A stretch of DNA of 40,908 bases from Caldifarciminota bacterium (GTDB taxonomy: Bacteria > Hydrothermota > Hydrothermia > LBFQ01), in contig JALWZG010000096.1 of assembly GCA_027002825.1 (NCBI GenBank), forward strand, positions 1-40,908. The letters run 5' to 3'. Position 1 is the stretch's first letter, and every line of letters begins with the position of its first letter. Both the position numbers and the translations under genes were made by a program. This document shows positions 1,461 through 4,101 of the stretch, piece by piece. The notes under the pieces are model-generated. The model searched no databases. It had not been told where the DNA came from and saw nothing but the letters and a program-made list of their open reading frames with translations.

Positions 1461-3151
1461 CCCGTGTCTTTCTCCGCCTTTTTTATCTTTTCGCTCAGGT
1501 TTGAGTAAAATTCCCTTATGAGGCCTATGTACGTCCCCTTGCCTTCCTCTATGAGGTCAAGATCCTTCTCCATGTTGGCCGTGAAGTTCTCCTCAAAGAG
1601 GTCGGGGAAGTCCTTGAGGAGCTGTTGAAGCACCTTTCTGCCCTTCTCCGTAGGGGCGAGGGCCTTTCCCCTCCTGTAAATGTACTTCCTCTTAAAAAGG
1701 GTTGAGATGATGGTGGCGTAGGTTGAAGGCCTTCCTATGCCCTTCTTTTCCAGCGTCTCAACAAGGGTCGCCTGTGTGTACCTCGGAGGCGGTTTCGTGT
1801 GATCCTTGACCAGATCCAGTTTCTTCGGTGTGAGGGTCTCCCCTTCCTCAAGGTGAGGGATTTCACTTTCCTTCGCGTTGTAGGGGAAAACCCTGCTCCA
1901 ACCGTCAAATGTTATCCTTATACCCTCGGCCTTGAACTCCACACCCTCAACCTCCAAAATCACCTCGGTCTTCTCATACCTCAGGGCGGACATCTGACTG
2001 GCTATCGCCCTCCTCCATATGATCTCGTAAAGCCTTACGGCATCCTCGTCCAACTTGCCCTTAAGTGAGTCCGGGGTTATGCTTGGATAGGTGGGCCTTA
2101 TGGCCTCGTGGGCGCCTTGAACGTTCGCCTTCCTTTCGCCGTAGGTTCTGCCCCTTTTTGGGAGATACTCCTGTGGGAAGTTCTCCTTTATGAACTTCCT
2201 GAGGTAGCTCACGCCCTTCTTTGAAAGCCTCGTAGAATCCGTCCTGTGGTAGGTTATGAGTCCCACACGCTTGCCGTCTATCTCAACTCCCTCAAAGAGC
2301 ATCTGGGCTATGCGCATGGTTTTCTCCGCAGAGAAACCGAGAAGGCTGTTGGCGAGCTGCTGCAGGGTGGACGTCTTGAGGGGTGGGGGAGGGTTCTTTT
2401 TCACCTCTCGCCTCTCAAACCTCTTGACGACAAAAGGCTTACCCTTTACGTTCTCAAATTTTTCCTTGGCCTCCTCTTCCCCTTTGAACTCCTTGACGGT
2501 CTTGGCCGTGAATTCAACACCCCCCTTTTCAAAAGTTGCGATTATGTGCCAGAAGGGGCGGGGTTTGAACCTGAGTATCTCATCCTCCCTTTCAACTATG
2601 AACCTCAGGGCTACGGTTTGAACCCTTCCGGCCGAGAGACCCCACCCTTTGAGCTTCCTCCACAGGAGTGGGCTTATGAGGTAGCCGACGAGGCGATCGA
2701 GGACCCTCCGGGCCTTCTGGGCCTCAACCTTTTTCTCGTCTATCTCCGTGGGATTTTCAACGGCCTCCCTGACGGCCTCCGGCGTTATCTCGTAAAAGAG
2801 GACACGTTTTATGGGTTTTTTTAACTTCTTCAGCTCCTGCGCCAGATGGTGGGCTATGGCCTCACCCTCCCTGTCGGGGTCGCTACCTATGAGTATGTAA
2901 TCGCTCTCCTTCGCCACCTTTTTTATGAAATCGACCGTCTTTTTCTTCCCCCTGATGAACACGTACTTCGGCTCAAATGTCCTGAGGTCAACGCCCAACT
3001 CCTTGGGAGGCAGATCCTTTATGTGGCCCTTGCTCGCGAGGACGGTGAATTTACCCTTCAGGTACTGGGCGAGGGTACGGGCCTTGGTCGGGGACTCCAC
3101 GAGGAGAAGAGGGCGTCCCTTTTTGGAATTCCCTTTACCTTTCCCCCTCAT
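1457..3151 (-). CDS. topA: DNA topoisomerase I (type IA), short form without obvious C-terminal zinc ribbons
   Basis: Toprim LLVESPTKARTLAQYL, SDPDREGEAIAHHLAQEL, catalytic-Tyr region GLITYHRTDSTRLS; protein ends right after the core. Confidence 0.95.
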   Translation of the reverse strand: MRGKGKGNSKKGRPLLLVESPTKARTLAQYLKGKFTVLASKGHIKDLPPKELGVDLRTFEPKYVFIRGKKKTVDFIKKVAKESDYILIGSDPDREGEAIAHHLAQELKKLKKPIKRVLFYEITPEAVREAVENPTEIDEKKVEAQKARRVLDRLVGYLISPLLWRKLKGWGLSAGRVQTVALRFIVEREDEILRFKPRPFWHIIATFEKGGVEFTAKTVKEFKGEEEAKEKFENVKGKPFVVKRFERREVKKNPPPPLKTSTLQQLANSLLGFSAEKTMRIAQMLFEGVEIDGKRVGLITYHRTDSTRLSKKGVSYLRKFIKENFPQEYLPKRGRTYGERKANVQGAHEAIRPTYPSITPDSLKGKLDEDAVRLYEIIWRRAIASQMSALRYEKTEVILEVEGVEFKAEGIRITFDGWSRVFPYNAKESEIPHLEEGETLTPKKLDLVKDHTKPPPRYTQATLVETLEKKGIGRPSTYATIISTLFKRKYIYRRGKALAPTEKGRKVLQQLLKDFPDLFEENFTANMEKDLDLIEEGKGTYIGLIREFYSNLSEKIKKAEKDTG

Positions 3152-3254
3152 CCCACCCGTCCTTTTTGACGAGTATCATGTACATGCTCCAAAGGAACAT
3201 GGAGGTCACAACAGTCCAAGACACACCCATCATCAACAAGGCGTCCAAACTCAT
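3135..3254 (-). CDS. Small single-TM protein, 39 aa
   Basis: MSLDALLMMGVSWTVVTSMFLWSMYMILVKKDGWDEGER; TATAAT (3262-3267) lies 7 nt upstream of the ATG; overlaps the topA start. The 99 aa ORF track start is not supported. Confidence 0.6.
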   Translation of the reverse strand: MSLDALLMMGVSWTVVTSMFLWSMYMILVKKDGWDEGER

Positions 3255-3289
3255 GGGAGGTATTATACAACGGAAACAAGGAGGTAAAT

Positions 3290-3561
3290 GTGAGCGAGGA
3301 CCAGACGCTTTATATCGTGGGGATGTGGGCGGGCAGGGACCCCCTCCAGAAAGACGGACTAACCAAGCCGCCTGATCCTCCGCTCTACGGTTGTGCGTGG
3401 CCTCCGCATCCTCGTGATAGACGACGTAATCCACACCGGCCGCACTATGAGAAGGGTAGTCCGAGCCTTAAGGACGTGCCGGAGCTGAGCGTATAACCTT
3501 CCTCGCAATCGCTGACGCCACAAAGTCCAACCCCGAAGACTTACAGCCTTATAATCCCAAC
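3290..3561 (+). pseudogene. Degenerate, frameshifted phosphoribosyltransferase gene
   Basis: SD AAGGAGG before GTG 3290 (VSEDQTLYIVGMWAGRDPL, frame 2). The PRPP-loop motif LRILVIDDVIHTGRTMRRVVRALR is in frame 0 (about 3402-3473). AERITFLAIADATKSNPEDLQPYN continues in frame 1 directly into the 3562 ORF. Stops separate the segments. Confidence 0.6.
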
Positions 3562-4101
3562 GTGAATCCGGATCTGGACGAGGCCACTGAAAAACTCCTG
3601 AACCAAATTGAAAACCCTGATCTGAAAATCCTCGCCCTGATATTACTGAAAAAACTTAACAAACTGGACGAGCTCTCAGAAATCAGGAGGCTCCTACAAA
3701 GCGAGCTGTGGCACAGGGAACTACACCTCATATCCAACAGTGCGGTAAAGCCGAAGGGCCTTAAGGCCGTCTTGAAGCCCGACCTTGACACCTCACAGAA
3801 ATACGCCGACGTCGTTTATATCTACGAGGAGAACGGCCAAACCGTAGCCCGCATAGTGGAGACCAAGGGTCTTGTGTCCAAGGACAGCGAAGAGGATATA
3901 AGGGAGAAGTTTCGGAACACCGTAGAGTATATCAAGGGGCTGGGATTTGAAGTAGACCGCTATGAGCTTTATCTTGTGATACCCAAGCGTTTGGAGGAGT
4001 ATATAACCGTTCCCGATATAGAGGGGGTAGAAGTAGTCAAGGTAAACCCGGAGGTCGTAAATGATATGCAGCACCCCATATATCCCGAAAATCACCCTTA
4101 G
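3562..4101 (+). CDS. Uncharacterised protein with possible PD-(D/E)XK nuclease-like core
   Basis: GTG start with TATAAT 3550-3555 (6 nt gap); motif KYADVVYIYEENGQTVARIVETKG resembles D-x(n)-ExK. Confidence 0.55.
   Translation: MNPDLDEATEKLLNQIENPDLKILALILLKKLNKLDELSEIRRLLQSELWHRELHLISNSAVKPKGLKAVLKPDLDTSQKYADVVYIYEENGQTVARIVETKGLVSKDSEEDIREKFRNTVEYIKGLGFEVDRYELYLVIPKRLEEYITVPDIEGVEVVKVNPEVVNDMQHPIYPENHP

What the first reader, a model, noticed from the sequence alone, without database searches (positions are those of the whole stretch)
3290..4101. Frameshifted phosphoribosyltransferase running into a PD-(D/E)XK-like ORF
A PRPP-binding motif (GLRILVIDDVIHTGRTMRRVVRALR) sits in frame 0 between stops. 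The preceding start, with a strong SD (AAGGAGGTAAATGTG), is in frame 2. The continuation AERITFLAIADATKSNPEDLQPYN is in frame 1, contiguous with the 3562 ORF carrying YADVVYIY...ARIVETKG. This looks like an ancestral PRTase-nuclease fusion undergoing decay, with the C-terminal module possibly rescued by a leaderless GTG promoter (TATAAT 3550-3555). Sequencing error or recoding are alternatives.
Basis: partly seen in the sequence, partly recalled or inferred. Interest (0 to 1): 0.6.

Follow-up and report, generated by a model that had tools for sequence, protein, structure and literature searches.

The report
Broken PRTase–nuclease gene with inner promoter
In a WOR-3 bacterium, a broken two-part gene still carries an intact DNA-cutting-type enzyme, and the sequence signals around it suggest this second half is switched on by its own promoter hidden inside the gene's codons.

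Summary
A PRPP-binding motif (3399-3473) is cut off at its 5' end. It is out of frame with an intact PD-(D/E)XK-like ORF (3562-4101). In-frame PRTase–nuclease copies exist in the same genome (C53, 87% nt) and in a sister species (C83). Both PRTase and nuclease parts evolved under purifying selection between them (dN/dS 0.10 and 0.13), so the fusion was real and the window copy is decaying. The upstream SD-led start (3290) belongs to unrelated sequence, so there is one frameshift plus a junction, not two shifts. The nuclease family occurs in 7 of 147 genomes of the phylum, at scattered sites, with PRTase, with a phage-type DdrB-ParB region, or with no N-terminal domain. CCT-TAT-AAT (conserved "PYN" codons) lies 6 nt before a GTG. 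TAT-AAT is invariant across five diverged clades although AAT is about 9% of Asn codons here, and GTG is the first usable start in four copies with a broken or truncated N-terminus. TATAAT 6-9 nt before ATG is 7-16 times over-represented genome-wide. The likeliest reading is an autonomously expressed nuclease tail left from a viral-type polyvalent protein. Expression is untested.

The parts
3138..3254 (-). Conserved ~38-40 aa membrane ORF upstream of topA (left neighbour, context only)
   Evidence: tblastn hits 53-82% identity next to topA in all 7 relatives
3278..3387 (+). SD + GTG start (3290) and first part of a 68-aa ORF; unrelated to the PRTase, possibly spurious
   Evidence: No homology to C53 upstream of 3388; no significant match in 8 genomes; no Pfam hit
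3388..3473 (+). 5'-truncated PRTase remnant with PRPP motif (3399-3473)
   Evidence: Alignment with C53; Pfam Pribosyltran in C53, profile 81-133 of 158
3472..3475 (+). Single-base length difference that breaks the frame relative to C53
   Evidence: Pairwise DNA alignment
3475..3561 (+). Rest of PRTase remnant (ERITFLAIADATKS) and conserved linker NPEDLQPYN, in the nuclease frame
3547..3555 (+). CCT-TAT-AAT: conserved P-Y-N codons that form a TATAAT -10-like box (3550-3555)
   Evidence: Same codons in all seven full copies and in C104, G003:C30, C11 and C62 (C55 has ATG instead of CCT); genome-wide TATAAT-N6-9-ATG excess
3562..4101 (+). Intact 179-aa ORF, GTG start 6 nt after TATAAT; coiled linker plus PD-(D/E)XK-like nuclease
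   Evidence: family alignment A2; fold search
3574..3698 (+). Variable coiled linker, exchanged relative to C53 (mosaic)
   Evidence: Low identity to C53 with indels, between blocks of about 95% identity
3808..3867 (+). Putative catalytic D (3808-3810, YAD) and E-x-K (3859-3867, VETK)
   Evidence: Invariant D89, E106 and K108 in A2
4045..4063 (+). AACCCGGAGG relic: SD of the overlapping HTH gene in other copies; HTH gene itself missing here
   Evidence: AAC CCG codons invariant in 7 copies; HTH ORF in C53, C50 and C117

Best explanation
The window holds a decayed, mosaic copy of a gene family restricted to one WOR-3 family: an upstream domain (PRTase here), a QPYN-NPDL linker, a variable coiled coil and a PD-(D/E)XK-like nuclease, normally followed by a translationally coupled small HTH gene. 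The parent proteins look like phage-type polyvalent proteins. In this copy the PRTase is dead (truncated and out of frame) and the HTH gene is gone. The nuclease ORF is whole and is probably transcribed and translated as a leaderless gene from TATAAT-N6-GTG at 3550-3564. That promoter is written in codons kept the same across the family, so the nuclease survives wherever its N-terminal partner is lost. Shown: homology, frames, codon invariance, genome-wide promoter signature, selection on relatives. Inferred: promoter activity, nuclease activity, phage origin of the fusion.
For: Intact paralogue and sister copy. dN/dS 0.10 (PRTase) and 0.13 (nuclease) between them; 0.14 for the G002/G005 orthologues at one conserved site, one of which has a stop upstream. 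GTG is the first usable start in the window, C95, C104 and G003:C30. TAT-AAT is invariant in 11 copies while 53 of 63 conserved residues vary in codon; chance about 1e-6 to 4e-5 across five clades. One further clade has TACAAT-N6-ATG, i.e. V replaced by M at the start. TATAAT-N6-9-ATG 147 vs 20 (shifted) and 9 (reversed) in the whole genome; GTG form 36 vs 13. DdrB-ParB in G006:C108 (69.8 bits) on a contig with resolvase, endolysin-like glucosaminidase and transposase; its C-terminal half is 73% identical to the N-terminus of the C50 nuclease fusion. Top PDB fold hits are mostly PD-(D/E)XK enzymes.
Against: No transcript or protein data. Window-lineage changes in the nuclease are 5 N: 5 S (P about 0.08), too few to show constraint. 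Fold matches are weak (best E 0.0047; mean pLDDT 67). G006 copies have ATG 12 nt, not 6 nt, after TATAAT. The GTG form of the promoter pattern is enriched only about 3-fold. The parent ParB contig ends before the nuclease, so a complete ParB-nuclease protein was not seen in one piece; C50 and C117 show only the joint.
Confidence: 0.7

Rival explanations
1. Plain pseudogene: both PRTase and nuclease are dead or dying, and TATAAT is just two Tyr-Asn codons.
For: 5' truncation, frame break and loss of the HTH gene; other copies in G006 and a small remnant at C15 are plainly decayed; window lineage 5N:5S.
Against: Nuclease ORF open in all six full-length copies of the genus while their N-termini are broken or truncated in most; invariant rare codons at the -10 box; purifying selection in orthologues.
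Confidence: 0.22
2. Sequencing or assembly error makes an otherwise intact fusion look broken.
For: Only one single-base length difference at a short run of G; metagenome-assembled genome.
Against: The copy also lacks everything 5' of 3388, has a different coil segment and has lost the HTH gene, none of which a one-base error explains.
Confidence: 0.08
3. Programmed frameshifting joins PRTase and nuclease.
For: The nuclease frame stays open upstream to the break (open frame of 209 aa).
Against: C53 and C83 encode both parts in one frame without any shift; the segment 5' of 3388 is unrelated, so there is no upstream gene to shift from.
Confidence: 0.02
4. TATAAT and GTG are invariant because this short block is a recombination joint recently homogenised between copies, not because it is a promoter.
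For: Different N-termini and cores meet at this linker; the 32-nt block is 87-91% identical between otherwise diverged copies; the window copy is mosaic.
Against: Inside the block other codons do vary (CAG/CAA, CCG/CCC/CCA, GAT/GAA), while TAT-AAT and GTG do not; spacing fits the genome-wide leaderless pattern.
Confidence: 0.15

Closest known systems
Polyvalent proteins of phages and conjugative elements (Iyer et al. 2017, PMC5512222)
   Same: Multidomain proteins that use DdrB-like ParB and PRTase domains; DdrB-ParB lies near phage late genes; domains shuffle. A ParB member of this family sits on a phage-like contig.
   Different: PRTases there are reported mainly from Proteobacteria and Verrucomicrobiae. 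Here a WOR-3-only nuclease tail is shared by PRTase and ParB forms and persists alone on chromosomes with an apparent promoter of its own.
Leaderless (TA-led) bacterial genes (Zheng et al. 2011, PMC3160421; -10-motif of Deinococcus-Thermus, PMC12340547)
   Same: TANNNT about 12 bp before the start counted from its first T; here exactly 12 bp (3550 to 3562).
   Different: WOR-3 is not among the groups named in the passages read, and here the box lies inside the coding sequence of a fusion gene rather than between genes.
PD-(D/E)XK nuclease superfamily (restriction-endonuclease-like)
   Same: Conserved D and E-x-K; beta-alpha core; PDB hits HamA, EcoO109I, BamHI, Nt.BspD6I, FokI.
   Different: No significant Pfam, PHROGs or PADLOC family hit for the window ORF; narrow to one bacterial family.
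ShosT / PsyrT-type PRTases of defence systems
   Same: Best PADLOC matches of the C53 PRTase segment (E 4.4e-8 and 1.1e-5).
   Different: Only the C-terminal part of the profile is present; no partner antitoxin identified.

Membership tests
PD-(D/E)XK nuclease superfamily | D and (D/E)xK motif on adjacent core strands | tested here: met
   D89 and E106-x-K108 invariant in 7 copies; model strands at 90-96 and 99-106
PD-(D/E)XK nuclease superfamily | Restriction-endonuclease-like fold | tested here: inconclusive
   pLDDT 67; top hits mostly this superfamily but best E 0.0047
PD-(D/E)XK nuclease superfamily | Metal-dependent DNA cleavage | not testable with these tools
   Needs a biochemical assay
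Type I phosphoribosyltransferase | PRPP motif (hydrophobic run, DD, TG) | tested here: met
   LVIDDVIHTGRT at 3411-3446; Pfam 43.6 bits in C53
Type I phosphoribosyltransferase | Complete core domain in one frame | tested here: not met
   Window starts at 3388 and is broken near 3473; even C53 covers only profile 81-133 of 158
Polyvalent protein | Several conflict-type domains in one polypeptide of a phage or conjugative element | tested here: inconclusive
   DdrB-ParB protein on a phage-like contig, cut by the contig end; C50 and C117 show the joint to the nuclease
Leaderless gene | TANNNT about 12 bp before the start codon, in a genome with a general excess of such sites | tested here: met
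   3550 to 3562
Leaderless gene | Transcript 5' end at the start codon | not testable with these tools
   No RNA data

The most novel reading that the evidence does not exclude
A portable, self-expressing nuclease cassette: the conserved codons of the linker carry a leaderless promoter and start, and the last codons carry the SD of an HTH partner. The nuclease(-HTH) unit is therefore expressed wherever it lands and whatever is fused upstream, with interchangeable coils, nuclease cores and N-terminal viral-type domains.
Probability: 0.35. Interest if true: 0.7.

Novelty: new variant of a known kind. Interest (0 to 1): 0.5.

Why it matters
It gives a concrete, testable case in which decay of a fusion gene need not kill its C-terminal domain, because an internal leaderless promoter is encoded in conserved codons. 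It also predicts that leaderless genes are common in an uncultured phylum (WOR-3), which affects how start codons and fused genes are annotated there.

Tried and rejected
No relatives in phage records or in viral contigs for P0001, the ParB protein or the neighbouring contig protein. The phylum-wide profile search found nothing outside one family. The orthologous topA and b561 loci of relatives do not hold the gene and are not adjacent there, so no clean empty site could be defined. A transposon with fixed ends was considered and rejected: copy boundaries vary. A CRISPR link, suggested by a repeat next to a G003 copy, was not pursued. AlphaFold of the C83 fusion was uninformative for the truncated PRTase (pLDDT 27-46). 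The C15 match is a tiny nuclease relic. No paper in the library links leaderless genes with WOR-3.

Full report
**What is there.** The window is contig C96 of a 1.72-Mb genome. DNA alignment to a paralogue at G000:C53 shows 87% identity from 3388 to 4054 with abrupt ends. C53 encodes a 254-aa protein in one frame: PRTase segment, linker, nuclease. A sister species (G002:C83) has the same arrangement, 81-87% identical. The window copy differs by missing everything 5' of 3388, by a single-base length difference near 3473, by a coil segment (3574-3698) that does not match C53 although both flanks are about 95% identical, and by loss of the HTH gene that overlaps the nuclease end in C53, C50 and C117. 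The SD-led ORF at 3290 has no relative.

**Was the fusion real?** Between C53 and C83, dN/dS is 0.10 for the PRTase part (17 syn, 6 nonsyn; P about 1e-6 against neutrality) and 0.13 for the nuclease. So both parts were kept as one protein for most of that time. Even these copies hold only part of a PRTase (Pfam positions 81-133 of 158). Its nearest PADLOC relatives are ShosT and PsyrT.

**Family and origin.** A profile of linker plus nuclease finds 7 of 147 genomes of the phylum, all in one family, in scattered contexts. Other copies have no PRTase. C50 and C117 carry a region that continues, on G006:C108, into a DdrB-ParB protein (69.8 bits over a cut-off of 27.6; 73% identity over the shared part). 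That contig also has a serine resolvase, an endolysin-like glucosaminidase, a transglutaminase-like protein and an IS110-type transposase. DdrB-ParB and PRTase domains are both described in phage polyvalent proteins (PMC5512222). C104 keeps the same linker and end but a different core. The topA and b561 neighbours of the window copy are separate and empty of the gene in relatives. In G006 several copies share internal deletions, so a decayed form has itself spread.

**Fold.** An AlphaFold model of the window ORF (pLDDT 67) shows a beta-alpha core after a long helix. The best PDB matches are mostly PD-(D/E)XK enzymes but weak (best E 0.0047). D (3808-3810) and E-x-K (3859-3867) are invariant in the family.

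**The leaderless start.** TATAAT 3550-3555 is the Tyr-Asn of the linker QPYN and lies 6 nt before GTG 3562. In all seven full copies and in C104, G003:C30, C11 and C62 these residues are coded TAT-AAT, and the preceding Pro is CCT except in C55. AAT is 9% and TAT 27% of their synonymous codons in this genome. Across five clades the chance is about 1e-6, or 2.5e-6 to 4e-5 given that one clade had it (this assumes synonymous saturation, supported by dS above 2 or undefined between clades). Of 63 conserved residues, 53 vary in codon; the ten that do not include these two and AAC-CCG at the end, which with the next bases spells GGAGG before the HTH start. A further relative has TACAAT-N6-ATG, methionine replacing valine at the start. 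In the window, C95, C104 and G003:C30 the GTG is the first usable start codon. Genome-wide, TATAAT-N6-9-ATG occurs 147 times against 20 at N18-21 and 9 for the reversed pattern; the GTG form occurs 36 against 13. In 134 predicted genes of loci from this genus, TATAAT-like boxes at spacing 6-9 number 46, against about 6 expected from other spacings. This matches the published definition of leaderless bacterial genes (PMC3160421).

**Selection on the window copy.** Polarised with C83, the window nuclease has 5 nonsynonymous and 5 synonymous changes, P about 0.08. This is too little to decide between a live gene and a young pseudogene. Orthologues at one conserved site in G002 and G005 (one with a stop upstream) are clearly constrained (dN/dS 0.14, P about 1e-6 to 1e-5).

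**Verdict.** Decay of a true PRTase-nuclease fusion: about 0.9. Nuclease of PD-(D/E)XK type: about 0.85. Independent leaderless expression of the nuclease: about 0.75, by inference only. What the nuclease does is not shown. A DNA-acting enzyme of viral or defence origin is the likeliest, paired in other copies with a small HTH protein.

Noticed in passing
G000 whole genome; window starts 6339(-), 33069(+), 3254(-) and others: Leaderless-type promoters look common in this WOR-3 lineage (147 TATAAT-N6-9-ATG sites). In 31 sites collected from fetched loci there is a strong C six bases before TATAAT (25 of 31, several of them copies of this family).
   Followed up: partly
3138-3254 (-): A ~38-40 aa single-helix membrane ORF directly upstream of topA is conserved in all seven relatives and is likely an unannotated small gene.
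   Followed up: no
L094 2152-4261 (-) (G000:C53): A DNA methylase fused to a DUF5618 (HEPN-like) C-terminus, followed by two DUF5618 paralogues, directly upstream of the intact PRTase-nuclease copy: possible defence cluster.
   Followed up: no
L092 (G006:C108): Phage-like contig with DdrB-ParB, resolvase, glucosaminidase, transglutaminase-like protein and uncharacterised possible virion genes; no relatives found in viral contigs.
   Followed up: partly
L053, L054, L055, L093 (G006): Decayed nuclease copies share identical internal deletions yet lie at different sites, so a broken derivative has been dispersed by an unknown mechanism.
   Followed up: partly
L057 5075-5692 (-) (G000:C104); L066 (G004:C65): Same promoter-linker module joined to a different PD-(D/E)XK-like core (YDVLIETNKGPIHAEVKTYL), suggesting exchangeable nuclease cores.
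   Followed up: no
L010 and L044 (G003): A palindromic repeat-like stretch (protein reading GFTVRPNSLQVK) recurs beside a nuclease copy and beside topA in G003; nature not examined.
   Followed up: no
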